From assembly GCF_000499845.2 (NCBI RefSeq), contig NC_023749.2:26509621-26573620 (forward strand): a stretch of 64,000 bases of DNA, in the 5' to 3' direction. The number at the start of each line of letters is the position of its first letter. The first letter of the stretch is position 1. This DNA comes from Phaseolus vulgaris (Eukaryota; Streptophyta; Magnoliopsida; Fabales; Fabaceae). The translations under genes were made by a program, and so were the position numbers. Under the pieces are notes generated by a model. The model was not told the origin of the DNA. It saw nothing but the letters and a program-made list of their open reading frames with translations, and ran no database searches. Shown one piece after another: positions 1-63,063 of the stretch.

Positions 1-804
1 TTATGAATATCTTTGAAAAATAATTTCATGTGTTAAAATTGTGTTTTGATATGTTGAAAACTTCTTTTACAATCAAAGGTCTATTAATTGATTGAAACAC
101 TTATGATATCTTTGAAAAACAATTTCATGTGTTAAAATTGTGTTTTGATATGTTTAATACTTCTTTCATTTACAATCTAAGGTTTTATAAACTAGGAAAC
201 TATAAGAAAGTGAATATTCTGTATAATAATAGTTGAACAGTATCTTAACTATTGAAAAAAAGCGTATTACTTAACTAAATGTTTGCAACTTGTTCTTTTC
301 GCTATTAATTGATTAAAAACACTTATGATATCTTTGAAAACCAATTTCGTATGTTAAAATTGTGTTTTGATATGTTTAATATATCTATTATAATCCAAGC
401 CTATTAATTGATTGAAACAATTATGAGTATCTTTGAAAAACAATTTCTTGTGTTAAAATTGTGTTTTCATATGTTTATTATATTTTTTACAATCTATGGT
501 CTATAAGTTGATTCAAACACTTATGATACCTTTGAAAAACCATTTCATGTGTTCAAATTGTATTTTGATATGGTTAATACTTCTTTTACAATCTAAGGTC
601 TATTAATTGATTGAAACACGTATGATATCTTTGAAAAACAATTTCATGTGTTAAAATTGTGTTTTGATATGTTTAATACTTCTTTCATTTACAATCTAAG
701 GTTTTATAACCTATGAAACTATAAGAAAGTGAATGTTCTGTATAATAATAGTGTAAAAGTGTCTTAAATATTGAAAACAAGCGTATTACTTAACTAAATG
801 TTTG
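1..804. repeat. AT-rich ~100-bp tandem repeat (compound satellite)
   Basis: About six diverged copies of a ~100-bp unit are visible, each opening like ttatgatatctttgaaaa and closing near ctattaattgattgaaaca. Two copies (about 106-300 and 607-804) carry an extra ~100-bp block with aactataagaaagtgaat and aactaaatgtttg, so the repeat has a short and a long form. No coding potential is seen. The long form at 283-296 continues into gcaacttg, whereas the last copy is cut at the same place by the Tat-A LTR. A centromeric or pericentromeric satellite is possible but is not shown by the sequence. Confidence 0.85.
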
Positions 805-2001
805 TGATCCGATCGGTCATCGGTAGTCGATGACATCAGCATCAGAGAACCACGTGGACCACTCACAGGGTGACACGTGGACCAGGTGGCAGAGAGGTAG
901 GGGGACGATCGCCAAGAGAGGTGATCGGTGGTCAGTAACCAAGTTACCACCGACAGATCAGGCGGTAGAGAGGTCGGGGGATAGATCACCCAGAATGGTG
1001 ATCGGTGGTCAGTAGCCAAGTGACCACCAGCAGACCAGTTCCCAGACTCGCGCCTGGAGGCAGAGCGCGAGTAGCGAATAAACACTGATCAGTCATCGGG
1101 TGTATTGTCATCGGGGTCTCGTGTTACACGCAGTTAAACTGGGACTAAGGTTCCCAGCGAGAGCGTTACGCATGGACCTCGCATGAGCACACCTCAAGGA
1201 ATCATGCACGAGAGTGGCCTGAGGGAACCAGTAAGCCAGTCGGTGATTGGTGATTCCCTCAACCCATTACGTGCGTGTCATCCTGAAGGGTAATTTGCCT
1301 AGACCAGCCACACCCGACGTTCTCCTAAGAGTATGCAATTTGCCCAGATAAGAGAAGCATCCCAAGTTACTCCGCAAGGGTGTAGCTTAGGCAGACAAAG
1401 AGAGGCGCTAGAGCCCTTCCAGTAAGTGACACGTGTGTGGTTAGATGTGAGTTGCAGGCCTCCACGTGTCACCATCTGAGAGGGGTGCGGTCCAGACAAA
1501 AGAGCACTCCGTACCGCTAAAGGTACAGACAGGCGCAGCCAAGCGCAGACATGCGCAGACTCTCACGCTCCCCATTGCTGATTCTGAAGGTACGCTTTCT
1601 CTGAAAAGCACGACAGGGTTCTGACACATGCCAGAAAAGCATAACAGAATTCTGTTATGCCCAGAAGCAGGGAAAGAGGGATAAAAGACAGAATCAGAGG
1701 GAGAGTGGGGGAAAGAAAGAAAGGAAAAAAAAAGGAGAGAGGAAAAAAAACAGAGTGCAAGTTTTTCTGATACACACGTTTTTTACTAAGTTTCCAGTTT
1801 TCTGGTGGTTCTGTTGAACTAACTTGATCGTCGGAGTGCAAACGGCCGCTAGAGGCGCCGTCTGTGTATTTTGCAGGTCACATTTCGAAGACATCTGAGA
1901 GAGAGAGTTCAGAAGGTGATTCTTCAGGAGACACAGTCGCGAAGACAGGGCATAAAGTGTTACGAAGCGATTCACCCACGTTCAAGTTGCCGGCAGGATC
2001 A
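805..2001 (+). repeat. Tat-A copy 1, 5' LTR
   Basis: It matches 11530-12758 and 55264-56474 almost base for base. It begins TGATCC and ends GGATCA, directly before the primer-binding site. Four CACGTG (G-box) hexamers lie at 851, 874, 1430 and 1463. Relative to the other two copies it lacks about 31 bp after 1290. A GATAAAA stretch near 1679 is the only TATA-like site seen. Confidence 0.93.
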
Positions 2002-2097: not shown

Positions 2098-5000
2098 ATG
2101 CCTAGAAACAGACAACCATCACCTGCGCCGTCCGCTGACGAAGGAGCTGTGACAATGGCGCAGGTCCTGGAAATGGTGCGCACGCTGCAGGATAACGCTG
2201 CAGCGTCGAAAGTCGAACAAGAAAGGATGCAGGCGGAGTTGGCTGCGTCGCAAAGCAGGAACGACGAACTGAATCGTGTCAACGAAGAGTTGAGAAGAAC
2301 GCTGCAGGCGCAGAGGGAGCACGTCGTTGACGAAAGGGTGTCTAGGCAGCCTTCACCTCCAAGGGCATTTCCCATGCCATTCTCCCCCGAGATTATGGGA
2401 ACCATGGTGCCTTCCAACCTGGTGGGGGTAAAAGCGTCGTTCAAAGGGGTAGAAGACCCGGAGGCGCATCTGACGGCATTCCACACCCAGATGATGTTGT
2501 CTGGGGGCTCAGACGCTGTATACTGCAAGATGTTCATGAGCACACTGAGCGGAATCGCCATGGAGTGGTTCGTGAGTTTACCAGAAGGGCACATCACGTC
2601 TTTCTCTCAGTTCTCGAAGCTCTTCATTGAACAATACATCGTCAACAAGGCACCTGCAGTGGTGTCCTACGACCTGTTCGATGTGTGCCAATACCAGGGG
2701 GAGTCGCTGAAAGATTACCTCAACCGTTTTGGAGCACAAGTGGTTAGACTACCCAGCAAAGATGAAGATATGCTTGTGCACGCGTTTAAGAAGGGAGTGC
2801 TGCCTGGCCCTTTCAGTGAGTCTCTCATCAGGAGCCATCCCAGCACTTTTGCAGAGATCCGACGGCGTGCGGTGGCGCACATAGTGGCAGAAACAGAAGT
2901 TTCTGAGAAGAGGGGAAGTGCTGCACCACCCAGACCGCGTGGAGGGCAAGGAAAACCACAGCAAGCGAGGGTGCATGAGGCCAAAGAAGGGAAGAAGGTG
3001 CGAGAAAAACCTCGTCCCTATGCACCAGGCAAAGACCAGAGTAAGGGGCGTGCAAGGGAGAATAACGCACCCCCGAGATACAACTTCATGGTGGGATTGG
3101 CGGATCTCATCGCCCTTCCTGCCGTAGCAGCAAGGCTACGAGTACCAGAGAAGACAGACAAGGTACTCGGAAGGAAGAAGAATGAATGGTGTGAGTTTCA
3201 CCAGGCCTTTGGCCATACACTTCATTCCTGTTTGGCGCTGGGACACCAACTGGCAGAGTTGGTGAAGTCTGGCTTTCTAGCAGATTACCTGCGTGAGCCG
3301 CAGGGTGATCGCGCGTCAGGATCCCAAACTGGAGAGCAACAGCATGAGGTCCCTGTGCATGGGGAAGTGCAGACGATCGCTGGAGGCTTCTCTGGTGGGG
3401 GATGCACAGCTTCACAAAGAAGGAGATACACTCGATCTGTGATGGCGGTAGATGCAGTGAATGAGATTCATTACCCTGAGGTGGACATTGTCTTCAGGAA
3501 AGCAGACCTACGAGACGTTGTCCCGCACGACAACGACCCTGTGGTCATTTCTCTCATCACAGCAGGAAGACGGGTGCATAGAGTACTCGTAGATCAAGGG
3601 AGCTCGGCGGATGTCATGTTCTGGCCAACATTCAACAAGCTACAGTTGTCCCCTGATCAGTTGAGACCGTATGCTGGTTGTCTCTACGGTTTTGCAGGGG
3701 ATCAGGTAGAAGTGCGGGGATACATCGAGCTGAGGACAACGTTCACTGACGGAACGACAGCCCGCACGGAAAAGATAAAGTACCTGGTGGTGAACGCCCC
3801 TTCTGCGTACAATGTCCTGTTGGGAAGGCCAACGCTCAATAGACTGGGCGCAATACCATCGACAAGGCATATGAAGTTGAAGCTGCCATCGATGGAAGGG
3901 GCCGTGATAACCATCAAATCGGATCAGGCTGAGGCAAGACGCTGTTATGAGAACAGCTTGAAACAAAAAAGAAGTGTGTGCCATGTCACCACAAAACCAC
4001 CACCAGGCGTGCGCGAAGAGCGATTGGCGGTCAGGGAGACACAAGGCGCTCAGAGGATGGAGAGCGCTGCGGTGGGGGGCTCCCAGGTGGCCCAAGTTGA
4101 GGAAGAAGATGAAGGCACGATCACTCCTCGCGAGTCAGGGATCGCGAGAGCGGTCATTGCCAGTGAGAGGAGGCCCCACCCAGCTGAAGGATGGGTCGAG
4201 GTGGACATCAGGGGAAGAAAATTCAAGTTGGGGGAATCCCTCGTTGAAGAAGAGCGAAGGCTGATCATGGGTGTGATTGAGAAGCACATGAATGCCTTTG
4301 CATGGTCATCATCCGACATGCCAGGAGTCGACCCCGATTTCCTCTGCCATCGTCTTTCAATGGACCCCATGGTTCGACCGGTGCGACAGAGAAGAAGGAA
4401 ATTCAACGAGGAGAAGAGGAAGGTGATCCACGACGAAGCGCAGAAGCTCCTTGTCGCAGGGCATATAAGAGAAATCCAGTACCCTGAGTGGTTAGCGAAT
4501 GTGGTACTGGTGCGGAAGGCGAGCGGCAAGTGGAGAATGTGCGTGGACTTCACTGACCTCAATAAGGCGTGCCCCAAGGATTCTTACCCCTTACCCAGTA
4601 TAGATGCTCTAGTCGATAGCGCCTCGGGGGGAAAGCTACTCAGCTTCTTGGACGCTTTCTCAGGGTATAACCAGATCAGGATGCACCCAATGGACGAATG
4701 CAAGACCGCGTTTATGACGGAACGGTCTTGCTATTGCTACAAGGTCATGCCATTTGGGTTGAAGAATGCGGGGGCTACCTACCAGCGGCTCATGGATAGG
4801 GTGCTCTCGCCCATGCTGGGAAGGAACGTACACACCTATGTAGATGACATGGTGGTTACGTCCCAAGAGAAGAAGCATCATGCAGCTGATCTGGAAGAGC
4901 TATTCACCACCATTGCAAAGTATAGGCTGAAGCTCAACCCTGAGAAATGCATATTCGGAGTGGAGGCTGGGAAGTTCTTGGGTTTCCTCTTGACAGAGCG

Positions 5001-5958
5001 GGGAATTGAAGCCAACCCGGAGAAGTGTGCGGCGATCGTGGCAATGAGGAGCCCGACGACGGTGAAGGAGGTGCAGCAGCTCACCGGTCGCTTGGCAGCA
5101 CTGTCCCGATTTATGTCTGCTGGAGGGGAGAAAGGTCACCCATACTTCCAGTGTCTCAAGCGCAACAGCAGATTTCTCTGGACGCAGGAGTGCGAGGAGG
5201 CCTTCATTAAGTTAAAGGGTTATCTGGCAAGCCCACCAGTCTTGCGAAAGCCCCAGGTAGGCATCCCTCTCCGTCTATACTTTGCTGTTACGGAGAGGGC
5301 AGTCAGTTCAGTCCTGGTGCAAGAGCTGGACCAGGCCCAGAGGCCTGTTTATTTCGTAAGCAAGGTGCTGCAAGGCCCTGAAACCAGGTACCAGGCCCTC
5401 GAGAAGGCTGCTCTAGCGGTGGTATTCTCAGCCAGAAGACTCAGGCATTATTTCCACAGCTTCACAGTGGTGGTGATGACTGATCTGCCTATCCAGAATG
5501 TATTGAAGAAACCTGATGTGGCAGGAAGGATGGTCAAGTGGGCAGTAGAATTATCGGAATTCGATATTCAGTACGAGCCCCGAGGACCGATCAAGGGGCA
5601 GGTGTTCGCGGACTTCGTAGTCGAGCTATCATCCATCGCGACACCTGCAGAAGGGCTAGATTTTCGATGGGTGTTATCGGTGGATGGCTCCTCTAATCAG
5701 CAAGGAAGCGGTGCTGGGGTCATCCTGGAAGGGCCAAACGGAGTATTGATTGAGCAGTCCCTCCGTTTCGCCTTCAAGGCTAGCAACAATCAGGCGGAGT
5801 ACGAGGCCCTGATCGCGGGAATGTTGCTAGCAAGGGAAATGGGAGCAAGAAATCTGCTGGCCAAGAGCGATTCGTTACTGGTCACCGGGCAGGTTACCGG
5901 GGAGTTCCAAGCAAAGGACCCCAGATGGCGGCCTACCTGGAGTATGTGCAGCTCCTGA
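2098..5958 (+). CDS. gag-pol: Tat-A gag-protease-RT-RNase H-aRNase H polyprotein, frameshifted near its end
   Basis: This is the retrotransposon polyprotein for capsid, maturation and reverse transcription. I start it at the ATG at 2098 (MPRNRQPSP), just after the primer site; the frame is open further upstream, but that part lies in the LTR. Counting from this Met: gag capsid about 110-270; CX2HX4HX4C knuckle C365/H368/H373/C378; protease-like VLVDQGSSAD near 497; RT about 760-960 with D852 (LDAFSGYNQI) and YVDD 914-917; Ty3-type RNase H about 1010-1130; then a second, archaeal-type RNase H opening WVLSVDGSSNQQGSG. The protease has DQG in place of the common DSG/DTG. Copy 2 has one more C in the run at 5916-5919; its loss here shifts the frame and separates integrase (5925-7493). 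RT itself is unbroken. Confidence 0.92.
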   Translation: MPRNRQPSPAPSADEGAVTMAQVLEMVRTLQDNAAASKVEQERMQAELAASQSRNDELNRVNEELRRTLQAQREHVVDERVSRQPSPPRAFPMPFSPEIMGTMVPSNLVGVKASFKGVEDPEAHLTAFHTQMMLSGGSDAVYCKMFMSTLSGIAMEWFVSLPEGHITSFSQFSKLFIEQYIVNKAPAVVSYDLFDVCQYQGESLKDYLNRFGAQVVRLPSKDEDMLVHAFKKGVLPGPFSESLIRSHPSTFAEIRRRAVAHIVAETEVSEKRGSAAPPRPRGGQGKPQQARVHEAKEGKKVREKPRPYAPGKDQSKGRARENNAPPRYNFMVGLADLIALPAVAARLRVPEKTDKVLGRKKNEWCEFHQAFGHTLHSCLALGHQLAELVKSGFLADYLREPQGDRASGSQTGEQQHEVPVHGEVQTIAGGFSGGGCTASQRRRYTRSVMAVDAVNEIHYPEVDIVFRKADLRDVVPHDNDPVVISLITAGRRVHRVLVDQGSSADVMFWPTFNKLQLSPDQLRPYAGCLYGFAGDQVEVRGYIELRTTFTDGTTARTEKIKYLVVNAPSAYNVLLGRPTLNRLGAIPSTRHMKLKLPSMEGAVITIKSDQAEARRCYENSLKQKRSVCHVTTKPPPGVREERLAVRETQGAQRMESAAVGGSQVAQVEEEDEGTITPRESGIARAVIASERRPHPAEGWVEVDIRGRKFKLGESLVEEERRLIMGVIEKHMNAFAWSSSDMPGVDPDFLCHRLSMDPMVRPVRQRRRKFNEEKRKVIHDEAQKLLVAGHIREIQYPEWLANVVLVRKASGKWRMCVDFTDLNKACPKDSYPLPSIDALVDSASGGKLLSFLDAFSGYNQIRMHPMDECKTAFMTERSCYCYKVMPFGLKNAGATYQRLMDRVLSPMLGRNVHTYVDDMVVTSQEKKHHAADLEELFTTIAKYRLKLNPEKCIFGVEAGKFLGFLLTERGIEANPEKCAAIVAMRSPTTVKEVQQLTGRLAALSRFMSAGGEKGHPYFQCLKRNSRFLWTQECEEAFIKLKGYLASPPVLRKPQVGIPLRLYFAVTERAVSSVLVQELDQAQRPVYFVSKVLQGPETRYQALEKAALAVVFSARRLRHYFHSFTVVVMTDLPIQNVLKKPDVAGRMVKWAVELSEFDIQYEPRGPIKGQVFADFVVELSSIATPAEGLDFRWVLSVDGSSNQQGSGAGVILEGPNGVLIEQSLRFAFKASNNQAEYEALIAGMLLAREMGARNLLAKSDSLLVTGQVTGEFQAKDPRWRPTWSMCSS

Positions 5959-7493
5959 AGACGTCTTTCGCCGAGTTTGAGTTAGTGCATGTACCAAGAG
6001 AGCAGAACGCCCGAGCAGACCTGCTTGCCAAGCTGGCCAGCTCAGGCAAAGGGGGGAAGCAGAGGACTGTCATTCAGGAGACCCTGAAGGTGCCACGCGC
6101 GTTTGTATCAGACAACCAGGTACTTCATGTATACAAGTCAATGGAGCGTCTAACGATCGGTCATCGGTCGTTGACTCAAGAGACGCTGAGAGCGCCGAGG
6201 GTGAGATCGCGACCCTCAAAGATCGGTGAGTCGATGGAGGTCCACGCGGAGAAGGAACCCCACACCTGGATGACGCCATACCGGCTATACTTAGAAGATG
6301 GTGTACTCCCGCTCGATCTGGCAGAGGCAAAAAGAATAAAGAGGAGTTCAAGTAAGTTTACTCTCATAGATGGAAGCCTATTTAGATTTGGATTTTCTCA
6401 CCCTGTGCAGATCTGTGTACACGGCGAACAATGCACCAGACTCATGTCTGAGCTGCACGAGGGGGTGTGCGGAAGCCATGTAGGTGGTCGCGCTTTGGCA
6501 AGTAGGGTACTCCGCGCGGGGTACTACTGGCCAAAGCTGAAGGAAGATTGCATAAGGTTTGCTCAGCGATGCAAACAATGTCAGCTGCATGCAGATTGGC
6601 ACAAGGCACCCCCTGAGGAGTTGAGGTCCATCCATAGCCCGTGGCCATTCCATACATGGGGGATTGACATCCTAGGACCTTTTCCCCTGGCGACAAGGCA
6701 GATGAAGTTCCTCATTGTGGCCATTGAATATTTCACTAAGTGGGTGGAGGCAGAGCCAGTTGCCCACATCACCGCACAGAAAGTTGAACACTTCGTCTGG
6801 AAGAACATTGTCTGCCGCTTCGGAATACCCAAGAGGCTGGTTTCCGACAATGGCACCCAGTTCACCAGTCATCAGTTGAGGAAGATGTGTGAAGAGCTAA
6901 AGATACAACAGGTTTTCGCATCTGTGGAGCACCCACAAACAAATGGGCAGGTGGAGTCAGCAAATCGAGTGCTGCTCAGGGGGCTGAAGCGGAGGCTAGA
7001 CAAGGCCAAAGGAGGCTGGGCAGAGGAGGTCCCCAGAATTGTGTGGTCTTACCACACCACCCCACAGTCCAGCACCCATGAGACACCCTTCAGCCTTGTC
7101 TATGGGACAGACGCCATGATTCCTGTGGAGATACAGGAGAGCTCCCCCAGATTCTTGAACTTCGTTGCTGAAGAGTCCAATGAAGAGCGTAAGGTGAATT
7201 TGGACCTGCTAGACGAAGTGCGAGAAGAGGCCAGAGTCAGTGCTGAAGCTGTGAAGAGAAGAGTAGAGCGGAGGCACAACTCCAAAGTGAGGCCCAGGCG
7301 CTTCCAGGAAGGTGATCTGGTGATGAGAAAGGCGCATCAGAATGACATGCAGAATAAGTTATCCCCGAAGTGGACAGGCCCGTACAGAGTGGTGGAGACA
7401 TTAGAGAACGGAGCCTATCGCCTAGAGACTTTGGAGGGAGGAGCAATCCCCAGAACGTGGAACGCCACCCATTTAAAATTTTATTTCAGTTAA
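5925..7493 (+). CDS. Tat-A end of aRNase H plus integrase (second frame)
   Basis: This continues pol after the 1-bp deletion; the ATG at 5925 is only the first Met in the new frame. Residues 1-40 close the archaeal-type RNase H (ARADLLAKLAS, with the last acidic residue D32). Integrase follows: zinc-binding H178, H185, C216, C219, then the catalytic triad D248 (WGIDILGP), D308 (SDNGTQF) and E344 (QVESANR), all intact. The C-terminal part ends HLKFYFS before a TAA. The product would join element cDNA into the host chromosome. The triad and zinc ligands suggest that only the upstream frameshift disables it. In copy 2 the same part is fused in frame with RT. Confidence 0.93.
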   Translation: MAAYLEYVQLLKTSFAEFELVHVPREQNARADLLAKLASSGKGGKQRTVIQETLKVPRAFVSDNQVLHVYKSMERLTIGHRSLTQETLRAPRVRSRPSKIGESMEVHAEKEPHTWMTPYRLYLEDGVLPLDLAEAKRIKRSSSKFTLIDGSLFRFGFSHPVQICVHGEQCTRLMSELHEGVCGSHVGGRALASRVLRAGYYWPKLKEDCIRFAQRCKQCQLHADWHKAPPEELRSIHSPWPFHTWGIDILGPFPLATRQMKFLIVAIEYFTKWVEAEPVAHITAQKVEHFVWKNIVCRFGIPKRLVSDNGTQFTSHQLRKMCEELKIQQVFASVEHPQTNGQVESANRVLLRGLKRRLDKAKGGWAEEVPRIVWSYHTTPQSSTHETPFSLVYGTDAMIPVEIQESSPRFLNFVAEESNEERKVNLDLLDEVREEARVSAEAVKRRVERRHNSKVRPRRFQEGDLVMRKAHQNDMQNKLSPKWTGPYRVVETLENGAYRLETLEGGAIPRTWNATHLKFYFS

Positions 7494-8640
7494 AATTGTA
7501 CGGTAATGGCGTTCTCACGCTAAAAGGCACATGCTTTGTTTATGGTGGAAACAGTTGAACAGACAAGGGGGCACTCTTTTCCCTAAAGAGGGTTTTTAAC
7601 GAGGCCACCCAATTAAAGAAAAATTTCCAGCATATAAAGTGTTCTCAAGTATTAAAGTTAAAATCCTCCTTGCCCCAGGTGCAAGTGCAGGTGATTGGTT
7701 AGGCCCTACTTGCCCTAGGCGCAAGTACTGGCACCGATCTAAGTCTTCCTCACCCCAGGTGTGAGCGCAAGCAGAAAGGTTTGAAAGGCCAGGGGTGCTA
7801 GTAAGACCAGGAGAAGGAAAGGAAAGGTTTTGACAAAACGTCCTTACCCACTTGGCATGCACCAATATTGGCCCAGTAAAACTCTCAGTCAGAAAACCTT
7901 ACTCACCCCAGGAGTGAGACAGGGAGTGATCGACTCAACCCGCCAAAGGGTGATGACCTCGGGGAAAGGGAAAGGGGTTAGCGAGAAACACTTCCTTTTC
8001 CCCAAGATGAGGCCTCACTTTGAGCAATCGATGTCAAGGTCCTTTATGCACTTAGCGCTAGAGCGACAGAGAAAGCTAAGTAAGGACTAAAGAGCGATCA
8101 CCGATGAGTCGTCAGTAGTTGGCTAGTAGTACAAAGCAGCGCACGAGGACTGTTAAACACCAAGCTGAGGGAACAGCCAGTCGAGATCATGCAGATCGCG
8201 CTAAGCCTGAGTTGGTTAACACTTAGTCCGCGCAAAGAGAAGAGAAGCAGATCGCGCTAAGCCTGAGTTGGTTAACACTTAGTCGCGCGCAAAGAGAAGA
8301 GAAGCAGATCGCGCTAAGCCTGAGTTGGTTAACACTTAGTCGCGCGCAAAGAGTAAGAGAAGCAGATCACGCTAAGCCTAAGCTGGTTGACACTTAGTCG
8401 TGTGCGAAAGGAAAGGCAAAGCCCAAGATCGCACTGAACCTAAACTAGCTAACAGTTAGTCGCGCACATAAAGGTAAGTGGAGTTCAAAGAAAATACAAA
8501 GAAAAATTGAGCAATTGAAACCAAGGTATATCACCAGAGATGTTCATACAATTGTCAGTTACAAAGAGTTGAATGGTGCAGAAACATAAGGTTACAAAAT
8601 GAAACTTTGTACAGAAGAAGTCAAAATTACAGAAGGAAGA
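7494..8640 (+). other. Tat-A spacer between pol and the antisense gene
   Basis: No supported coding region. It holds imperfect CCCCAGGTG-type repeats near 7675-7770 and the 57-bp tandem repeat listed separately. Because pol runs rightwards and the antisense gene leftwards, both transcripts would end in this interval. It is conserved almost unchanged in copy 2 (61967-63063). Confidence 0.7.
8192..8470 (+). repeat. ~57-bp tandem repeat, five units, Tat-A copy 1
   Basis: Units start at about 8192, 8248, 8305, 8363 and 8424, each opening cagatcgcgctaagcctgag and closing near acttagtcgcgcgcaaagag. The fourth and fifth units are more diverged. The spacing is 56-61 bp. The same array is at 62662-62938 in copy 2. 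No fixed repeat with variable spacer is present, so this is not CRISPR-like. Confidence 0.88.
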
Positions 8641-8643
8641 GAT

Positions 8644-10923
8644 TCAGGGAGTAGGAGGCTTGAGCTTCCCATCTACCACCGAGTGATGAATGCTGAATTG
8701 CGCAAGGTCCAGTTCTGGAAGGACGCAGCGGACTTGCTCGAGCGCCAGCTCGAATCCATCAATGAGGGAATCGGCGCCCACGTTCATCAAGTCCTCTTTC
8801 TCCGCCTCCAGACTTCGCCTCGAAGCCTCTGCAGCATCCCTCTGCGTGGTAAGGGTAGCAAGGGAGGAGGCAGCCTCAGAGAGCTTGCCCACTGCCTCCT
8901 CAAGCTTCTTTTCGGCGGCAGCAGTTGCCTCCTTGGCGGCCTTGAGCATCTCTACCCGCTGAGAATCCTGTTGGCGTAGGGAGGAGTTCTCAGCCTCTAA
9001 CTCCTCCACCATCTGACTCCGTTCGAGCAAAGAGGAATTCTCAGCCTGTAACTCTGCCACCTTCCAGTCCAGAGGACCAACAGTCTGCCCCATCAAGATC
9101 TCCATCTTGATGGTCTCCTGGACCTGCAGCAAGTACTCCCTTCTGGCCTTCTCCACCATGCCTCGCATCAGCTCGACGGACCCCTGAGCGGCTTCAAGGT
9201 CACTGCGCAGCGACTCGTTGTCGTGCTCGAGTTCCCTCACCCTTTTCTCCAGGACCTTCTGCTTGCGATGCTGGTTGGAGAACTCCAGCGAGAGCACCAC
9301 CTGCTTGGCAAGGTGTGCGTCAATCTCCTCCCCGCTCCAGTCGACGAGCTCCCCATTGCTGATGTGCTGTCGCACCATGGAGATAACTCTGCTGAAGTTT
9401 TCATGGTTGGCTCCAGTGTTGCTTGGGCGCGAGCCAGACCCACCATGTTCAGCATTGGCGGTGGAGATTGTCATTGGAGGCGGGGCACACTCTTTTTGAG
9501 CAGAAACACCCCCAGCAGGGTGAGCGGATGGACCAGGTGATTGGCCTGCTGGGGGGGAAGTTGGTGGTTGAGAGGTTGGGGGCGATTTTTGGCCAGGAGA
9601 AGGAGGACATGCGGGCTCTGGGGCCGGTCGTGTAGAGGGAGAGGGAGGTGGTGAACCTTCTTCTACCTCTACCACCTCTATCCCTCCAGGCTGGAGAGAC
9701 GAGACCCCCTCAGCCACTGCTTTCTTCCTCTGGCGGTGAATGAGGGGGGAGCCTGAGCTTTCCTCTTCCACTGAGACAGCAGCAGCAGCAGGAGCCAGCG
9801 AAGAAGCCTTCACCAGTCTCTTCCTTTTCTTCCCTTGCTCGGGGCCTTCGGCTGGCGCGATCGAGAGCGGAGGGGCTTCGATTGGCTCGGTGGTGGAAGA
9901 GGAAGAGCCAGTCCCTTTGGCCGCTCGGCGTTTAGCGAGCTCCAACACCGCCAACCTCCTATCTTTCCCTGACATTGAATCTGCATAGGCAAGAAAGAGG
10001 AAAATTAGACAGCTAAGAGACGCAAGCAAGGTGGAAAGTATAAGAGCATGCATGAGGAAGTATAAATGTCCTAAGGGGCGGCAGAGAAAGAACTACCTAT
10101 ATATTTCTTCAGGGAAACCACATCAAACTCATCCTTGATGAGGCGAGCGGAGTCATACTTAGCCCCCAGGAGCAGCCCACACAGCTCGCGCTCATAGGGG
10201 GCCATGGTCTCGAGATCCTTGGGTTTTTTAAATTGAACCTGGGGAACCCAGTAGAGGGGGTAGATGAGGGCTTTGTGGGGTGGCGGATATCATATAAAAT
10301 CTGCCCTTCCAGTCTTTGAAGGACTGCTGGTACAGGCCCAGAAGCACCCGTCCAGCAACCCCGTTCAGGCTGACCCAAAACCTATCCCCTGGTTTCTTCG
10401 CCTCAAAGAAGTAGAGGAACACCTCCACCGAGGCGTTGTGCCCAAAGTAGTTGCACAGAATCTGAAACGCCCGGATGAAGGCCCAGGCATTGGGGTGGAG
10501 TTGGCAGGGCGCGACGTTCAACTCCATCATCAGCTCTTTCTCGAAGAAGGTGAAGGGGAGTCGCAACCTCAACCTTTTGAAGATCGCGGAGTAAACAAAA
10601 ACGAAGGGCACCCCATTGGTGGCCCTGTCGTCAGCGCAAATGGGCATCCCTCGGGGAGGGATGCGGACTCGGATGTGGAAGTCGTTTTCCCTGTCTATGG
10701 AACACGAGGGTTCATCCGGGTCGTGGCTCAGAAGCGAGTTAAGATGGTCCTCAGGTAGCAAGATGGACGTTTCAGATAGCAACGCCAGAGGGGCCCAGTC
10801 ATAGACTTTGGCGTTGTCATGGAATGAGGTGACAACGGGCGGTGGCGAAGCTGGTGCACTCGCGGAGGGCTGTGCACCAGAAGAAGAGGCAAGGACGCGA
10901 GCGGTCTGCTTCAAGCGAGCCAT
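8644..10923 (-). CDS. Tat-A antisense gene: H3-tail-like N-terminus, PF04195-like exon 1, coiled-coil exon 2
   Basis: This is a minus-strand gene between pol and the 3' LTR. Proposed exon 1 is 10923-10097, the intron 10096-9981, exon 2 9980-8644; about 720 codons. I choose the ATG at 10923 because it begins MARLKQTAR, close to histone H3 (MARTKQTAR), and because a 3'-splice-like ttgcag ends ten bases before it. Exon 1 holds a domain I recognise as like PF04195 (putative gypsy-type transposon family), with motifs such as LHPNAWAFIRAFQILC and ERELCGLLLGAKYD. Two small compensating indels near 10275-10300 break exon 1. Exon 2 opens DSMSGKDRRL, has a KKRKRLVK basic patch that could be a nuclear signal, a Pro/Ser-rich stretch, and then long heptad-like coiled coil. 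The role is unknown. Antisense extra ORFs are known in Tat elements. Confidence 0.75.
9981..10096 (-). other. Predicted 116-bp intron in the Tat-A antisense gene
   Basis: On the minus strand the exon end atatag is followed by GTAGTT. The 3' end reads ctaat, then a pyrimidine-rich stretch (tttcctctttcttgcc), then tatgcag. Splicing joins the reading frame ...SLKKYI to DSMSGKDRR in phase 1. The Tat-C antisense gene has an intron at the same domain position and phase (31736-31921). RNA evidence is absent. Confidence 0.7.
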
Positions 10924-11375
10924 CGTGAGATAGCTGCAATGGAGGAAAAACGAAGGGTCAGAAATAGAAAGGGAGAGAGTGATGGATGGTTCGGTGAAAA
11001 ACAGAGAGGGGGAATGAGGAAGAAATGCCCAGGTAAAGGAGAAAGAAGGGGAGGCAGAAGCCAAAGCGGAAACATGGGAAAAACCCTAGCGCGGGTTGAG
11101 AAGAAGAAAAACAGGGAAGGTGAATGCATGATAACTAGAATGGTAAATGCAATCGGTAAAGATGACCAAAAAGGGGCCAGGGAAAAGAAAAACCATACCT
11201 TTGAATGATCGTAGGAGTATAGGATCACAGAGAATTCGAAGAAAGATGGGTGCGCAGAAGAAAGGTTCGCAGAGAGTTTGGGAGTCAAATGAAGAAGATG
11301 AAGGAACAGTGGAAGGGCGCGCCATTTTGAATAAGAGAAGCGCTAGCGACGCACAACGCTGGCCGTTGATGGTGC

Positions 11376-11515: not shown

Positions 11516-11529
11516 GACTGGGGGGCTTG
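11516..11529 (+). promoter_or_regulatory. Tat-A copy 1 polypurine tract
   Basis: gactggggggcttg lies directly before the TGATCC of the 3' LTR. A G-rich purine run at this place is the expected primer for plus-strand DNA synthesis. Confidence 0.7.
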
Positions 11530-12758
11530 TGATCCGATCGGTCATCGGTAGTCGATGACATCAGCATCAGAGAACCACGTGGACCACTCACAGGGTGACA
11601 CGTGGACCAGGTGGCAGAGAGGTAGGGGGACGATCGCCAAGAGAGGTGATCGGTGGTCAGTAACCAAGTTACCACCGACAGATCAGGCGGCAGAGAGGTC
11701 GGGGGATAGATCACCCAGAATGGTGATCGGTGGTCAGTAGCCAAGTGACCACCAGCAGACCAGTTCCCAGACTCGCGCCTGGAGGCAGAGCGCGAGTAGC
11801 GAATAAACACTGATCAGTCATCGGGTGTATTGTCATCGGGGTCTCGTGTTACACGCAGTTAAACTGGGACTAAGGTTCCCAGCGAGAGCGTTACGCATGG
11901 ACCTCGCATGAGCACACCTCAAGGAATCATGCACGAGAGTGGCCTGAGGGAACCAGTAAGCCAGTCGGTGATTGGTGATTCCCTCAACCCATTACGTGCG
12001 TGTCATCCTGAAGGGTAAGTCGCCTACGCAGAGAGTAACGTTTGGTGAGTGCGCCTAGACCAGCCACACCCGACGTTCTCCTAAGAGTATGCAATTTGCC
12101 CAGATAAGAGAAGCATCCCAAGTTACTCCGCAAGGGTGTAGCTTAGGCAGACAAAGAGAGGCGCTAGAGCCCTTCCAGTAAGTGACACGTGTGTGGTTAG
12201 ATGTGAGTTGCAGGCCTCCACGTGTCACCATCTGAGAGGGGTGCGGTCCAGACAAAAGAGCACTCCGTACCGCTAAAGGTACAGACAGGCGCAGCCAAGC
12301 GCAGACATGCGCAGACTCTCACGCTCCCCATTGCTGATTCTGAAGGTACGCTTTCTCTGAAAAGCACGACAGGGTTCTGACACATGCCAGAAAAGCATAA
12401 CAGAATTCTGTTATGCCCAGAAGCAGGGAAAGAGGGATAAAAGACAGAATCAGAGGGAGAGTGGGGGAAAGAAAGAAAGGAAAAAAAAAAGGAGAGAGGA
12501 AAAAAAACAGAGTGCAAGTTTTTCTGATACACACGTTTTTTACTAAGTTTCCAGTTTTCTGGTGGTTCTGTTGAACTAACTTGATCGTCGGAGTGCAAAC
12601 GGCCGCTAGAGGCGCCGTCTGTGTATTTTGCAGGTCACATTTCGAAGACATCTGAGAGAGAGAGTTCAGAAGGTGATTCTTCAGGAGACACAGTCGCGAA
12701 GACAGGGCAGAAAGTGTTACGAAGCGATTCACCCACGTTCAAGTTGCCGGCAGGATCA
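11530..12758 (+). repeat. Tat-A copy 1, 3' LTR
   Basis: TGATCC...GGATCA, near-identical to 805-2001 and 55264-56474. It retains the ~31 bp (12019-12050 area) that the 5' LTR has lost. CACGTG sites lie at 11576 and 11599 and twice more downstream. It is followed by atgaccaactcaattt, which belongs to a different repeat from the left flank of the element. Confidence 0.93.
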
Positions 12759-21196: not shown

Positions 21197-22156
21197 TGAT
21201 GGAGATCAAGCTCAAGTGGACATGGAGGCCAATCATCAAGAGCAAGAAGAGGTTGAGGCTCAAATGGAGGATGCTCATGAAGATAATAGCCCACCTCAAA
21301 GGCTTACAAGGAGCATGTTCAAGGCTTTAGGAGCTAATGGACGTTTGTTTTCTCTTTTTGTAATTTCTTTGTTTGAAGGTGCTTAGAGGGAAACATAAGA
21401 AACCTCTTTTGTAAAAGAATCTTTAGGTCTTTAATTTAGGAAACATAGGGGGGTGTGCGTTTAGTAGGGAGGTGTAGATGTAATAGGGAGGTGCCAAACT
21501 AAGAGAGGAAGTCACACCTTCCTCATGCTCTAGGATTGGCGCCACTTTTTGGGGGGAATTTTGAATTTAATTAGCTTTGCATTTCAGCACCTCTAGGGTA
21601 TAAATAAAGGTGCTTAGCTTGTACAATTCAGATTGGAAATTTGTATTAGTGAAACTCTACTCAATTTCAGAGAGAATTCGAGAGCTTTGTGCCTTCCTCA
21701 CTTAATCTTATCTTGAGAGTTCATGGTTACCTCAAGTGGCGGCATAGCACACTCATATTGGAGTCTCCATCCTCTAAGTGGCGTGATCATCCAACCAATT
21801 CCTCCATCTTCATGAGCTTTCTCTTCTCCTTCCTTCCTTCTCCTTTTACGTTCATGTCTTAGCTTGTGTTCTTGCATTTTCAGTTCGGTATTGTAGTTAC
21901 TTTGCTGTTTTGCTTCGGTTCCTTTTGCTTTTGCCGATTCTCTTTGCTTCTTCTTCATTTCTAGTTGTTGTTTTTTATTCAATTTGAAAATACATGGATC
22001 TTCCATGTGAGTTTGGGTTTTCGTACTAGTCTTGGTGAGTTCTTGAAAATAGAACCTTCATCCAATTCTATAAAAAAGTGCCTACCTCATATCCAACTCA
22101 AGTTGATTCCTAAGAATGTCAAGAATCATTCATAATGTGCTATTGGAATCATATCA
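21197..22156 (+). repeat. Element D 3' LTR
   Basis: Begins TGATGGAGATC after a tract containing actcggggagta, ends ggaatcatatca. A TATAAATA box lies at 21599. The middle resembles the left LTR of B1 (gggaggtgtagat, aagtcacaccttcc). A coding-like tail of pol (RLTRSMFKALGANG) lies in its first 150 bp, as in other plant gypsy elements. The right end abuts satellite. The left boundary is less certain than the right. Confidence 0.65.
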
Positions 22157-23594
22157 AGTTTGGGAGCAAAAGAAATTGATCTTGGCATGGTTGGTGCATA
22201 GCTAAGTTCCATGATTTTGGTGTTTTGGCTTGATTTTGTGAGTTGGTGGTGTGTGGGGTGAAAAACGAAAATCATGGTTTTGGAAAACTGGCCCGACTCA
22301 ATCCTCACAAATTCCTCCAAAGTGATGTGGGAGAAGTTTGGGAGCAAATGGAATTGATCTTGGCATGGTTGGTGCATAGCAAAGTCCATGATTTTTGTGT
22401 TTTGGCTTGATTTTGTGACTTGGTAGTGTGTTGGGTGAAAAACGAAAATCATGGTTTTGGAAAACTGGCTGGACTCAATCCTCACAAATACCTCCAAAGT
22501 GATGTGGGATAAGTTTGGTAGCAAAAGGAATTGATCTTGGCATGGTTGGGGCATAGCCAAGTTCATGATTTTGGTGTTTTGGCTTGATTTTGTGACTTGG
22601 TGGTGAGTGGGGTGAAAAACGAAAATCATGGTTTTGGAAAACAGGCTAGACTCAATCCTCACAAATACCTCCAAAGTGATGTGGGAGAAGTTTGGGAGCA
22701 AATGGAATTGATCTTGGCATGGTTGGCGAATAGCAAAAGTCCATGATTTTGGTGTTTTGGCATGATTTTATTACTTGGTAGTGTGTTGGATGAAAAACGA
22801 AAAATCATGGTTTTGCAAAACTGGCTGGACTCAATCCTCAAAAATACCTCCAAAGTGATGTGGGAGAAGTTTGGGAGCAAAAGGAATTGATCTTGGCATC
22901 GTTGGTGCAAAGCCAAGTTCCATGATTTTGGTATTTTGTCTTGATTTTATGACTTGGTGGTGTGTTGGGTGAAAAACGAAAATCATTGTTTTTCAAAACT
23001 GGCAAGACTCAATCCTCTCAAATGCCTCCAAAGTCATGTGGGAGAAGTTTGGGAGCAAAAGAAATTGATCTTGACATGGTTGGTGCACAGCGAAGTTCCA
23101 TCATTTTGGTGTTTTGGCTATCTTTTGTGACTTGGTGGTGTGTGGGGTGAAAAACGAAAATCATGGTTTTCGAAAACTGGCTGGACTCAATCCTCACAAA
23201 TGCCTCCAAAGTGATGTGGGAGAAGTTTTGCAGCAAAAGGAATTGATCTTGGCATGGTTGGTGAATAATAAAGTCCGTAATTGTGGTGTTTTGGCTTGAT
23301 ATTGTGACTTGGTGGTGTGTGGGGTAAAAAACGATAATCATGGTTTTACAAAACTGTCTGGACCCGTTCCTCAAAAATGCCTCCAAAGTTATGTGGGAGA
23401 AGTTTGGGAGCAAAAGGAATTGATCTTGGCATGGTTGGTGCAAAGCCAAGTTCCCTGATTTTGGTGTTTTGGATTGATTTTGTGACTTGGTGGTGTGTTT
23501 GGTGAAAAACGAAAATCATGGTTTGCCAAAACTGGCTGGACTTAATCCTCACAAATTCCTCCAAAGTGATGTGGGAAAAGTTTGAGAGTAAAAG
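22157..23594 (+). repeat. ~178-bp satellite, block 1 (about 8 monomers)
   Basis: Tandem monomers of 177-179 bp: gatgtgg marks occur at 22324, 22501, 22678 and 22857. Each holds gaattgatcttggcatgg, gattttggtgttttggcttg, gtgaaaaacgaaaatcatgg and actcaatcctcacaaat. Single-base changes and small indels separate the monomers. The block ends at ...gtaaaag, and block 2 (39298) resumes two bases further on in the same monomer phase. Confidence 0.95.
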
Positions 23595-24138
23595 TCATGG
23601 AAGAGGGCCAAGCTTAACACCCCATGAAAGACAAGAGCCAAACCTAGAGCCTCTAAAGCCAAGTGGGGAGCGTCAAGCACATAAAGAAGAGTGTTTAGAG
23701 GGGGATCATCTAGAAGGAGGAGGAGAGCGTCTAGGACCTCTTACTAGGTCTATGTCCAAGCTACGGATGGGGGCCTTGGGCCAAGCCATGGATGGGAGAG
23801 AAAGCAACATGTATATGCTCCGTGAAGGCCCATTAAGGGTAGCTTAGTACTAAGTGTAGTGTAAATAGCATAAACGTGTCTTACATGTGATTTACCCTAG
23901 ATTTGGTTCACGTTCTAGAACATTTCCTCATATGGCCGGCCTTGTGCTCCATGTGATCCATGTGGAGTAATTTGCATTTCATTTTGATTAGCATTAGGGT
24001 TGCATTATGGTCCTCCTTAGCCTATAAAAGGAGGAGCCTACACCTTGTATTTTCAAGATTGAATAGAGTATTGTTATGCTGCCAATTTAGTGCCATACAT
24101 TACTCCTTGCCTAGTTTCTAGGTTTTAATCTTCATTTT
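23595..24138 (+). repeat. B-family LTR, left part (interrupted by Tat-C)
   Basis: Starts tcatggaagagggcc, a one-base variant of TGATGGAAGAGG, inside the satellite. TATAAAAG at 24023. It stops at ttcattttt, where Tat-C starts, and its last part resumes at 33783. Flanks attttt/atttc support Tat-C having inserted into it. Confidence 0.8.
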
Positions 24139-38580: not shown

Positions 38581-39297
38581 CATGCCACAAGGTAGATGAT
38601 GCTCAAAATATTTCTAGACTCTTCTTTAGAGAAGTGGAGAGACTCCATGGTCTCCTTAGAAGTATAGTATCCGATAGAGATCCAAAGTTCATAAGCCACT
38701 TTTGGAAAACTCTTTGGGGCAAACATGGAACAAGACTACAATTTTCAACTTCTTGTCATCCTCAAATGGATGGTCAAATCAAAGTAGTCAATAGATCTCT
38801 TGGGACTATGCTTAGGGCTATCATGAAGGGAAACCATAAATCTTGGGATGAGTATCTTCCCCACATTGAGTTTGCTTACAATAGAGTAGTCCACAAGACT
38901 ACTAATGCTTCTCCTTTTGAAGTGGTATATGGATTTAATTCTCTCACAGCTATGGATTTGTTACCTCTTCCTAATCCACAAGATTTTGTGCATAAGGAAG
39001 GAGTAATCAAAGCCAATTTTGTGAAGAAAATGCATGAGAAGATGAAAATCCAAATACAACAACAAAATGAAAAGTATACAAAATACAACAATAAAGGGAA
39101 GAAAGAAATAATTTTTGAGGAAGGAGACTTAGTTTGGCTTCACCTTCGAAAAGACAGATTTCCAACTCAAAGGAAGTCCAAACTAAGTTCCCGAGGTGAT
39201 GGACCCTTTCAAGTCCTCAATAGAATCAACAAAAATGCATATAAATTGGATCTACCTCTTGAATATGGAGTACACGATACTTTTAATGTAATTGATC
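38560..39297 (+). pseudogene. B2 integrase C-terminal part
   Basis: Starts within the motif [11 protein letters not shown], so the zinc domain and first catalytic Asp are missing. It keeps IVSDRDPKF and HPQMDGQIKVVNRSL, where the catalytic Glu of D (QTEVVN) is Lys. It continues to [20 protein letters not shown] and RINKNAYKLDLP. At TFNV it passes into satellite (aattgatcttgg). Confidence 0.85.
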
Positions 39298-42200
39298 TTG
39301 GCATGGTTGGTGCATAGCCAAGTGCATGATTTTGGTGTTTTGGCTTGATTTTTGTGACATGGTGGTGTGTAAGGTGAAAAACGAAAATCATGGTTTTGAA
39401 AAACTGGCTGGACTCAATCCTCACAAATGCGTCCATCATGTGGGAAAAGTTTGGGAGCAAAAGGAATTGATCTTGGCATGGTTGGTGCATAGCCAAGTGC
39501 ATTATTTTGGAGTTTTGGCTTGATTTTGTGACTTGGTGGTGTGTGGGGTGAAAAACGAAAATCATAGTTTTGGATAACTGGCAAGAATCAATCCTCACAA
39601 ATGCCTCCAAAGTGATGTGGGAGAAGTTTGGGAGCAAAAGGAATTGATCTTGGCATGGTTGGTGCATAGCCAAGTGCATGATTTTGGTGTTTTGGCTTGA
39701 TTTTGTCACTTGTTGGTGTGTGGGGTGAAAAACGATAATCATGGTTTTGGAAAACTGGCTGGATTCAATCTTCAAAAATGCCTCCAAAGTCATGTGGTAG
39801 AAGTTTCGGAGCAAAAGGAATTGATCTTCGCATGTTGGTGCAAAGCCAAGTTCCATGATTTTTGTGTTTTGGCTTTATTTTGTTACTTGGTGGTGTGTGG
39901 GGTGAAAAACGAAAATTATGGTTTTGGAAAACTGGTTGGACTCAATCCTCACAAATGCCTCCAAAGTGATGTGGGAGAATTTTGGGAGCAAAAGGAATTG
40001 ATCTTTGCAGGGTTCGTGCATAGCAAAGTCCATGATTTTGGTGTTTTGGCTTCATTTTGTGACTTGGTGGTGTTGGGTGAAAAACGAAAATGATGGTTTT
40101 GGAAAACTTGATGGACTCAATCCTCACAAATACCTCCAAAGTGATGTGGGAGAAGTTTGGGAGCAAATGCAATTGATCTTGGCATGTTTGTTGCATAGCC
40201 AAGTGCATGATTTTGGTATTTTGGCATGATTTTGTGACTTGGTGGGGTGTGGGGTGAAAAACAAAAATCACGGTTTTGGAAAACTGGTTGGACTCAATCC
40301 TCACAAATGCCTCCAAAGTGATGTGGGAGAACTTTCGGAGCAAAAGGAATTAATCTTGGCATGGTTGGTGCAAAGCCAAGTTCCATGATTTTGGTGTTTT
40401 GGCTTGATTTATTGACTTAGTGGTGTGTGGGGTGAAAAACGAAAATCATGGTTTTGGAAAACTAGCTGGACTCAATCCTCACAAATGCCTCCAAAGTGAT
40501 GTGGGAGAAGTTTGATAGCAAAAGGAATTGATCTTGCCATGTTGGTGCAAACCCAAGTTCCATAATTTTGGTGTTTTGGTTTGATTTTGTGACTTGGTGG
40601 TGTGTGGGGTAAAAAACGAAAAATCATGGTTTTAGAAAAGAGGCTGGACTCAATCCTCACAAATACCTCCAAAGTGATGTGGGAGTAGTTTGCGAGCAAA
40701 AGGAATTGTTCTTCGCATGTTTGGTGCATAGCCAAGGGCATGATTTTGGGGTTTTGGCTTGATTTTGTGACTTGGTGGTGTGTTGGGTGAAAAACGAAAA
40801 TCATGGTTTTGGAAAACTAGCTGGACTCAATCCTCACAAATACCTCCAAAGTGATGTGGGATAAGTAGCAAATGCAATTGATCTTGGCATGTTTGTTGCA
40901 TAGCCAAGTGCATGATTTTGGTATTTTAGCATGATTTTGTGACTTGGTGGGGTGTGGGGTGAAAAACGAAAATCATGGTTTTAGAAAAGAGGCTGGACTC
41001 AATCCTCACAAATACCTCCAAAGTGATGTGGGAGTAGTTTGCGAGCAAAAGGAATTGTTCTTCGCATGTTTGGTGCATAGCCAAGGGCATGATTTTGGGG
41101 TTTTGGCTTGATTTTGTGACTTGGTGGTGTGTGTGGTGAAAAACGAAAATCATGGTTTTGTAAAACTGGTAGGACTCAATCTTCACAAATGCCTGCAAAA
41201 TGATGTGGGTGATGTTTGGGAGCAAAAGGAATATATCTTAGCATGGTTGGTGCATAGCAAAGTCCATGATTTTGGTGTTTTAGCTTTATTTTGTGATTTG
41301 TTGGTGTGTGGGGTGAAAAACGAAAATCATGGTTTTGGAAAACTGGCTATACTCAATGCTCACAAATACCTCCAAAGTGATGTGGGAAAAGTTTGGGAGG
41401 AAAAGGAATTGATCTTGGCATGGTTGGTGCATAGCCAAGTGCATGATTTTGGTGTTTTGGCTTGATTTTATCACTTGGTGGTGTGTGGGGTGAAAAACCA
41501 AAATCATGGTTTTGGAAAATTGGCTGGACTCAATCCTCACAAATACCTCCATAGTGATGTGGGTGAAGTTTGGGAGCAAAAGGAATATTTCTTGGCATGG
41601 TTGGTGCATTGCAAAGTCCATGATTTTGGTGTTATGGCTTGATTTTGTGACTTGGTGGTGTGTTGGGTGAAAAACGAAAATCATGGTTTTGGAAAACTGG
41701 CTGGACTCAATCCTCACAAATACCTCCAAAGTGATGTGGCAAAAGTTTGGGAGCAAATGGAATTGATCTTGGCATGGTTGGTGCATAGCCAAGTGCATGA
41801 TTTTGGTGTTTTGGCTTGATTTTATCACTTGGTGGTGTGTGGGGTGAAAAACCAAAATCATGGTTTTGGAAAATTGGCTGGACTCAATCCTCACAAATAC
41901 CTCCATAGTGATGTGGGTGAAGTTTGGGAGCAAAAGGAATATTTCTTGGCATGGTTGGTGCATTGCAAAGTCCATGATTTTGGTGTTATGGCTTGATTTT
42001 GTGACTTGGTGGTGTGTTGGGTGAAAAACGAAAATCATGGTTTTGGAAAACTGGCTGGACTCAATCCTCACAAATACCTCCAAAGTGATGTGGCAAAAGT
42101 TTGGGAGCAAATGGAATTGATCTTGGCATGGTTGGTGCATAGCAAAGTCCATGATTTTGGTGTTTTGGCTTTATTTTGTGACTTGGTGATGTGCGGGGTG

Positions 42201-43852: not shown

Positions 43853-44136
43853 TGATGGCATTTCATGAAGGTCTTCTTGAATCATGTAAGAAAAGTGGTG
43901 CGGAAGCTATGAAGGTGTGTGTGCAAGATCCTCCTAAGAGTGGTGTTGATCTTGAAGGTGCATGATAGGTATGATTATAGGGAGGTTCGGCCAGCCCAAG
44001 GATATGTGAAGGAAATGAAATTTAGAGCCGAGAAGCAAAGCTTGGCACAAAATGGCAGCATAACTTTACTCACAATAAACTTGAAAATACAAGGTGTAGC
44101 CATGCATGTGGGCTTGTGCTTGGGCCTCTTCCATCA
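43853..44136 (-). repeat. B3 3' LTR, internally deleted
   Basis: 284 bp compared with ~700 bp for the other LTR of the same element; the part between caaggtgtag and ccatgcatgtgggc is missing, including the TATA region. Ends are TGATGG/CCATCA. Confidence 0.88.
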
Positions 44137-56474: not shown

Positions 56475-56476
56475 TT

Positions 56477-56494
56477 TGGCGCCCACCGTGGGAC
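56477..56494 (+). promoter_or_regulatory. Tat-A copy 2 primer-binding site
   Basis: tggcgcccaccgtgggac; the last GG of copy 1 is GA here. Confidence 0.82.
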
Positions 56495-56570
56495 CCGAGT
56501 GAATCGTTGTCCCACATATACCACAGTTTTAAAGCTCACCAGAGTTTTATCAGTTTCTCTGATAGAGAAG

Positions 56571-63060: not shown

Positions 63061-63063
63061 AGG

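What the first reader, a model, noticed from the sequence alone, without database searches (positions are those of the whole stretch)
10897..10923. Histone H3 N-terminus mimic at the start of a retrotransposon antisense protein
Seen: the minus-strand ATG at 10923 opens a frame reading MARLKQTAR. Known: plant and animal histone H3 begins MARTKQTAR, so eight of nine residues match, including R2, K4, Q5, T6 and R8. After Met removal the protein would present a free Ala-Arg-x-Lys end, the form that H3K4 readers, writers and erasers recognise. Only T3 differs (Leu), which would remove the H3T3 phosphorylation site. The match stops at residue 9 and is followed by a PF04195-like domain. Inference: the element may use a histone mimic to recruit or occupy chromatin factors that act on H3K4, or it captured the 5' end of an H3 gene. 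A splice-acceptor-like ttgcag sits ten bases before the ATG, as 5' leader introns do in H3.3 genes. Tat-C lacks the motif, so it would be a gain in Tat-A.
Basis: partly seen in the sequence, partly recalled or inferred. Interest (0 to 1): 0.87.

Follow-up and report, generated by a model that had tools for sequence, protein, structure and literature searches.

The report
Histone-like start of retrotransposon accessory proteins
A backward-facing protein carried by bean retrotransposons starts with almost the same eight amino acids as histone H3, and natural selection has kept this start in many relatives, which suggests, but does not prove, that these mobile elements imitate a chromatin protein.

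Summary
The reading changes in three ways. (1) It is not a Tat-A gain. Among 128 relatives with a clear start the commonest is MARTK (56), and such starts lie on both sides of a midpoint-rooted tree built without the tail (5 changes among 123 rows), so A-R-T-K-x-T looks ancestral to these antisense Transposase_28 (PF04195) proteins. Tat-C lies in a clade that changed it. (2) It is not a captured H3 gene: similarity stops at residue 9 and intermediates exist. (3) It is kept by selection at the protein level. In 40 bean copies of the Tat-A clade, codons 2-9 show 5 amino-acid against 30 synonymous changes (linker 89:97, p = 1.6e-4; domain 257:660, p = 0.08). Whether the tail binds H3-tail readers or enzymes cannot be tested here. 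I favour H3-tail mimicry (SNAG-like docking on, or blocking of, H3K4 machinery) at about 0.35. The main rival is a conserved tail with an H3-unrelated partner. Against mimicry: no row is identical to H3, Tat-A lost T3, and several clades changed or lost the motif and persist.

The parts
10897..10923 (-). codons 1-9, MARLKQTAR, H3-like N-terminus (A1 R2 L3 K4 Q5 T6 A7 R8 after Met removal)
   Evidence: purifying selection
10228..10923 (-). antisense ORF, exon 1 (231 aa as read); reading departs from other copies after residue 221
10396..10569 (-). Transposase_28 / TRP28 domain (PF04195), aa 119-176
   Evidence: 30.3 bits against cut-off 26.2
9981..10096 (-). candidate intron (GT at 10096-10095, CAG ending at 9981) between exon 1 and the downstream ORF; inferred from sequence only
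   Evidence: no transcript data
8644..9980 (-). candidate exon 2, Ser/Pro- and charge-rich, repetitive helical (coiled-coil-like) sequence; no Pfam match
   Evidence: the coiled-coil reading is by eye
10934..10939 (-). TTGCAG, acceptor-like, ten bases before the ATG
   Evidence: function not tested
803..2001 (+). 5' LTR of element Tat-A, followed by a TTTGGCGCCCACCG primer-binding-site-like stretch
   Evidence: PBS reading is by eye
2098..5958 (+). gag-RT-RNase H ORF
5925..7493 (+). integrase ORF
11528..12758 (+). 3' LTR of Tat-A; 2 mismatches and 3 gap openings in 1232 aligned columns against the 5' LTR

Best explanation
The motif is the N-terminal tail of the antisense accessory (TRP28) protein of Tat/Retand-type LTR retrotransposons, a probably ancestral A-R-T-K-x-T tail kept by selection and here drifted to A-R-L-K-Q-T-A-R. 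Most likely mechanism (inferred): after removal of Met the free Ala-Arg-x-Lys end is bound in the pocket of a host protein that normally takes the H3 N-terminus, such as an LSD1-like LDL H3K4 demethylase, a PHD reader or another H3K4 enzyme. The predicted folded domain and the helical C-terminal part would hold it at nucleic acid. By occupying or recruiting that factor the element would slow its own silencing, as animal SNAG tails occupy LSD1. Shown: the tail, its distribution in the family, protein-level constraint, low model confidence (likely disorder) of the first ten residues. Known from papers for relatives: nuclear localisation and antisense expression (maize Grande). Inferred: any H3-reader partner and the anti-silencing effect.
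For: Two searches with the N-terminus neither scored nor used for words plus one search gave 277 listed proteins (capped lists: best 120 of 294, 444 and 166). Of 161 that reach the anchor, 128 have a clear start: 56 MARTK, 91 Ala2, 78 Arg3, 90 Lys5, 84 Thr7, 62 MAR-x-K-x-T. MARTK rows lie on both sides of the midpoint-rooted domain tree. With rows chosen by tail length only, 95 rows: motif mean rate 0.80, spacer 1.50, domain 0.98 (motif vs spacer p = 0.02, vs domain p = 0.30). Bean DNA: Tat-A clade codons 2-9, 5 amino-acid vs 30 synonymous changes; linker 89:97, domain 257:660; A1 R2 K4 T6 A7 R8 together 2:24. Wider set of 71 loci: codons 2-7 26:48, linker 88:47 (p = 4e-5), domain 746:1143 (p = 0.47). 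Arg2 codons vary CGT/CGC/CGA, 66 of 71 Arg. Plain charge is not what is kept: Lys4 to Arg 1 of 95, Arg2 to Lys 2 of 95. Three forms each reach 7 of 8 H3 residues: ARTKTTAR, ARTKRTAR (one locus), ARLKQTAR. Models: residues 1-10 at mean pLDDT 40 (window protein) and 47 (relative P0067, folded behind residue 10). Precedent: a SNAG peptide copies the H3 tail and blocks LSD1 (PMC5896174, passages). LDL2 is needed to remove H3K4me1 downstream of H3K9me2 in Arabidopsis genes (PMC13157976, abstract).
Against: No binding, localisation or expression data for this protein. No row is identical to H3 1-8 (best 7 of 8; 0 of 123). Residue 5 is usually Thr, not Gln, and Tat-A lost Thr3. Clades with an altered or lost tail persist: MVR/MTR (20 of 20 fetched, out of 36 bean matches not starting at residue 1), MSS and MDQ, so it is not indispensable. 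Arg2 is not unusually slow at the protein level (rate 1.17), and a hoped-for pattern of residues 2/4/6 conserved against 3/5 variable was not supported there. The motif is only as constrained as the average domain codon or site. Ala2 may partly reflect start context and Met-removal rules (recalled). In Tat-A part of the linker is also invariant. The window protein's own model is poor: 124 of 231 residues under pLDDT 50, confident only at about 121-200. Fold searches gave nothing significant.
Confidence: 0.35

Rival explanations
1. A conserved N-terminal tail with an H3-unrelated job (contact with nucleic acid, the element's own proteins, or protein stability); the likeness to H3 is coincidence frozen by descent.
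For: Constraint equals that of the domain, and neighbouring NPPP residues recur in short-tailed members; 0.08-0.8 families with 5 of 6 H3 residues are expected among 1e4-1e5; clades without the tail persist; no row is identical to H3.
Against: Arg2 and Lys4 are rarely swapped for each other; 7 of 8 identity in three forms; authors suggest nuclear, DNA-related roles for the family (PMC11963269 discussion and PMC7264820 section 7).
Confidence: 0.5
2. Neutral coincidence: the nine codons drift like the rest of a dead element.
For: Many copies carry stops in the ORF, and variants such as Arg to Cys or His look like CpG decay.
Against: 5 vs 30 amino-acid to synonymous changes against 89 vs 97 in the linker, p = 1.6e-4; motif spread through the domain tree.
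Confidence: 0.03
3. Capture of the 5' end of a host H3 gene by Tat-A.
For: Eight of nine residues match H3; an acceptor-like CAG sits upstream of the ATG.
Against: No similarity after residue 9; sister and distant families carry MARTKTTAR, MARTKRTAR and MARTKTTAN, so the start arose step by step in the element.
Confidence: 0.02
4. The start is constrained as DNA or RNA (splice or regulatory signal), not as protein.
For: A CAG upstream of the ATG recurs in distant subfamilies; part of the Tat-A linker shows no change, even synonymous.
Against: Inside the motif third positions vary: K AAA/AAG, T6 ACC/ACT/ACG/ACA, R CGT/CGC/CGA, A GCG/GCT/GCA over 71 loci.
Confidence: 0.05

Closest known systems
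TRP28 / Transposase_28 antisense proteins of Retand elements (Vicient 2025, PMC11963269; maize Grande gene23; rice RIRE2; common-bean ORF2 families of Gao 2014, PMC4093653)
   Same: PF04195 domain (Retand), antisense between pol and 3' LTR, long 3' internal region; some bean ORF2 proteins have an SMC match
   Different: An H3-like tail is not mentioned where I looked: no 'histone' or 'mimic' in the main text of PMC11963269 or PMC7264820, no 'histone' in PMC4093653
SNAG domain of SNAI1/GFI1 (LSD1 pseudosubstrate)
   Same: A free N-terminal tail likened to H3 that enters an H3K4 enzyme's pocket (PMC5896174, passages); works-like comparison only
   Different: Animal transcription factors; SNAG residues differ (recalled); binding is measured there, not here
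EZHIP and viral histone mimics (influenza NS1 recalled)
   Same: A non-histone protein carrying an H3-like stretch
   Different: EZHIP acts by an H3 K27M-like mechanism (PMC6513997, abstract start in the search listing); NS1's stretch is C-terminal (recalled); neither is a plant element family
Histone H3 / CENH3
   Same: First 4-8 residues of H3 (CENH3 likeness recalled)
   Different: No histone fold: the Pfam scan of the window protein gives only PF04195

Membership tests
TRP28 (PF04195) antisense accessory protein of Retand/Tat elements | PF04195 above Pfam's gathering score | tested here: met
   30.3 bits against 26.2; 110 of 112 aligned relatives match at E <= 0.01
TRP28 (PF04195) antisense accessory protein of Retand/Tat elements | antisense, between pol and 3' LTR | tested here: met
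TRP28 (PF04195) antisense accessory protein of Retand/Tat elements | reverse transcriptase falls in the Retand lineage | not tested
   no RT tree was built; inferred from structure and PF04195
Histone H3 mimic | matches the H3 N-terminus beyond chance | tested here: inconclusive
   7 of 8 in Tat-A; 5 of the first 6 in 58 of 123 rows; rough chance figures
Histone H3 mimic | the likeness is kept by selection | tested here: met
   protein-level constraint; that H3 likeness itself is the selected property is not shown
Histone H3 mimic | binds an H3-tail reader, writer or eraser | not testable with these tools
   no binding data or complex prediction available
Histone H3 mimic | protein is made and nuclear | not testable with these tools
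   only reported for a relative (Grande gene23, PMC7264820 sections 7-8)
Histone H3 gene or fragment | homology beyond residue 9 / histone fold | tested here: not met

The most novel reading that the evidence does not exclude
A widespread family of plant LTR retrotransposons has carried, for as long as the antisense TRP28 gene can be traced here, a histone H3 N-terminal mimic that engages host H3K4 machinery to counter its own silencing.
Probability: 0.3. Interest if true: 0.88.

Novelty: new variant of a known kind. Interest (0 to 1): 0.62.

Why it matters
The function of TRP28 antisense proteins, encoded by 97% of the recently active Retand clusters surveyed (PMC11963269, abstract), is unknown. 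A selected H3-like tail gives a concrete, cheap test: does the tail bind H3K4 readers or LDL-type demethylases? If yes, it would be a plant transposon family using histone mimicry against silencing, a parallel to SNAG tails and viral mimics. If no, a conserved tail still marks where the protein's partner may bind.

Tried and rejected
Rejected: H3 gene capture and Tat-A-specific gain. Rejected: a 2/4/6 versus 3/5 alternation of constraint. Pairwise DNA counts hinted at it, but protein site rates did not. One search chose rows by Lys at residue 5 and is circular for that site; one search repeats it with rows chosen by tail length.

Literature: all ten paper searches were made; those aimed at an earlier mention of the tail were 19, 31, 60, 61 and 98, read as listings only. 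In one search no listed paper has MARTKTT at the start of a word; a paper holding it would hold two of the terms, and all five two-term papers had MARTKQTAR instead.

Limits and dropped rows. The tree is a quick one (30 of 120 inner branches starred, 43 open, long-branch warnings for P0107, P0113 and P0084) and has no outgroup. In one search, 7 proteins with a lost or inner start (P0096, P0100, P0153, P0193, P0229, P0236, P0250) were removed. One search set aside 16 ambiguous and 17 short starts of 161; its rule sent P0004 (MARLKQTAR) to the ambiguous pile, and one search put it back. 'Synonymous' means fewest codon changes minus fewest amino-acid changes. In one search, L116 was dropped because its start is out of frame, and rows were found by a motif-shaped start, a bias that favours the motif. 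The bean loci (L009-L038), 35, 43 and 92 were, but for L116, chosen from matches starting at residue 1. Matches not starting at residue 1 were 1 of 150, 36 of 140 and 6 of 150 (hand count); 20 of the 36 were then read: 19 start MV or MT like the MVR/MTR clade and one has lost its start. These 20 were not added to the codon tests.

Full report
What is there. The minus strand from 10923 reads MARLKQTAR and opens a 231-aa ORF with a PF04195 domain. It lies antisense between pol and the 3' LTR of a young element, LTRs 803-2001 and 11528-12758, two mismatches and three gap openings. The genome is 537.7 Mb in 467 contigs, contigs C1-C11 being 31 to 63 Mb long, and the window lies on C11; I take it to be common bean, which is recall, not a lookup. 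A first look gives 11,582 candidates for this ORF; 150 were scored, and 149 of these match from residue 1 (hand count).

The start belongs to the family, not to Tat-A. Three protein searches, two of them scoring only residues 26-215 of other members, gave 277 listed relatives; the lists are the best 120 of 166, 294 and 444. Among 161 that reach the YxWA anchor, 128 have a clear start: 56 begin MARTK and 62 fit MAR-x-K-x-T. On a quick tree built without the tail (123 rows) the Lys5 state changes 5 times, and MARTK rows lie on both sides of the midpoint; without an outgroup, gain and loss cannot be strictly told apart. Clades without it: MDQ/MAQ-N; MSS, whose neighbours read MARTKM-TANPP and whose first-branching member reads MTANPP, suggesting a shift to the inner Met; and MVR/MTR, which the window's Tat-C (MVRPNSK) resembles. 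The closest sisters of Tat-A, also in bean, mostly begin MARTKTTAR, and one divergent locus begins MARTKRTAR. So 7 of 8 identity to H3 exists in three forms, two differing at residue 5 and one at residue 3.

Selection. In 40 copies of the Tat-A clade (21 Tat-A copies, L001 and L039-L058, and 19 of the 20 loci) the fewest-change count for codons 2-9 is 5 amino-acid and 30 synonymous changes, for the linker 89 and 97, for the domain 257 and 660 (Fisher p 1.6e-4 and 0.08). In 71 wider loci codons 2-7 give 26 and 48, the linker 88 and 47, the domain 746 and 1143 (motif vs linker p 4e-5, motif vs domain p 0.47). In disjoint pairs, over the four distance bands tried (25, 30, 27 and 35 pairs), the nonsynonymous/synonymous ratio was 0.11-0.23 for A1/R2/K4/T6, 0.26-0.75 for residues 3 and 5, 0.29-0.82 for the spacer and 0.16-0.22 for the domain. 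Protein site rates with rows chosen by tail length give 0.80 motif, 1.50 spacer, 0.98 domain (p 0.02 against the spacer, 0.30 against the domain). The tail is therefore constrained like the folded domain and more than the spacer between them. Tree counts treat changes as independent events, so the p-values are guides.

Structure. The AlphaFold model of the window protein is poor (mean pLDDT 55, pTM 0.41; only about 121-200 confident); that of the relative P0067 is better (74.5, 0.76). The first ten residues have mean pLDDT 40 and 47; in P0067 the chain behind them is folded. No solved or viral fold matched significantly.

How it may work. In H3 readers the free Ala1, Arg2 and Lys4 carry most of the contacts (recalled). 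The bean copies keep Ala, Arg and Lys and vary more at residues 3 and 5, though the protein rates over the wider family do not single out 3 and 5. SNAG tails show that an H3-like N-terminus on a DNA-bound protein can sit in LSD1 and block it (PMC5896174, passages). In Arabidopsis LDL2 is needed to remove H3K4me1 downstream of H3K9me2, and this goes with repression of genes (PMC13157976, abstract). An element protein that occupies or diverts such an enzyme, or recruits an H3K4 reader, would benefit from it. Every step after 'conserved, probably exposed tail' is inference.

Novelty. The antisense TRP28 proteins are known and their function is not (PMC11963269: abstract, first of two parts of results section 11, discussion; PMC7264820: sections 5, 7, 8; PMC4093653: passages). 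I found no mention of the H3-like start in the searches named under Tried and rejected; most subscription papers are not held.

Noticed in passing
window 10852-10879: Eight-base inverted arms TGGTGCAC / GTGCACCA in the Tat-A linker; in 21 copies codons 15-18 and 20-22 of the ORF show no change, not even synonymous, which hints at a nucleotide-level element.
   Followed up: partly
window 10228-10300: After residue 221 the antisense ORF of this copy departs from other scored copies, most of which match only residues 1-221, and from the conserved FPLYW region of relatives; the copy's antisense gene is probably broken.
   Followed up: partly
window 8190-8420: Tandem copies of a roughly 60-nt unit (agatcgcgctaagcctgagttggttaacac...) between pol and the antisense gene, seen by eye, like the tandem arrays described for Retand elements.
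   Followed up: no
window 22075-23620 and 39280-44000: Arrays of a 177-nt repeat (37 copies in family D1) in two separated blocks, satellite-like, with long minus-strand open frames across them.
   Followed up: no
window 55260-64000: Second Tat-A-like copy, 97% identical to Tat-A over its length in the window, cut by a run of N just past the window end, so its antisense start cannot be read.
   Followed up: yes
P0193, P0236, P0250, P0271: Proteins starting MTANPP or MTANPL beside relatives reading MARTKMTANPP: the H3-like tail may be lost by a shift of the start to an inner Met.
   Followed up: partly
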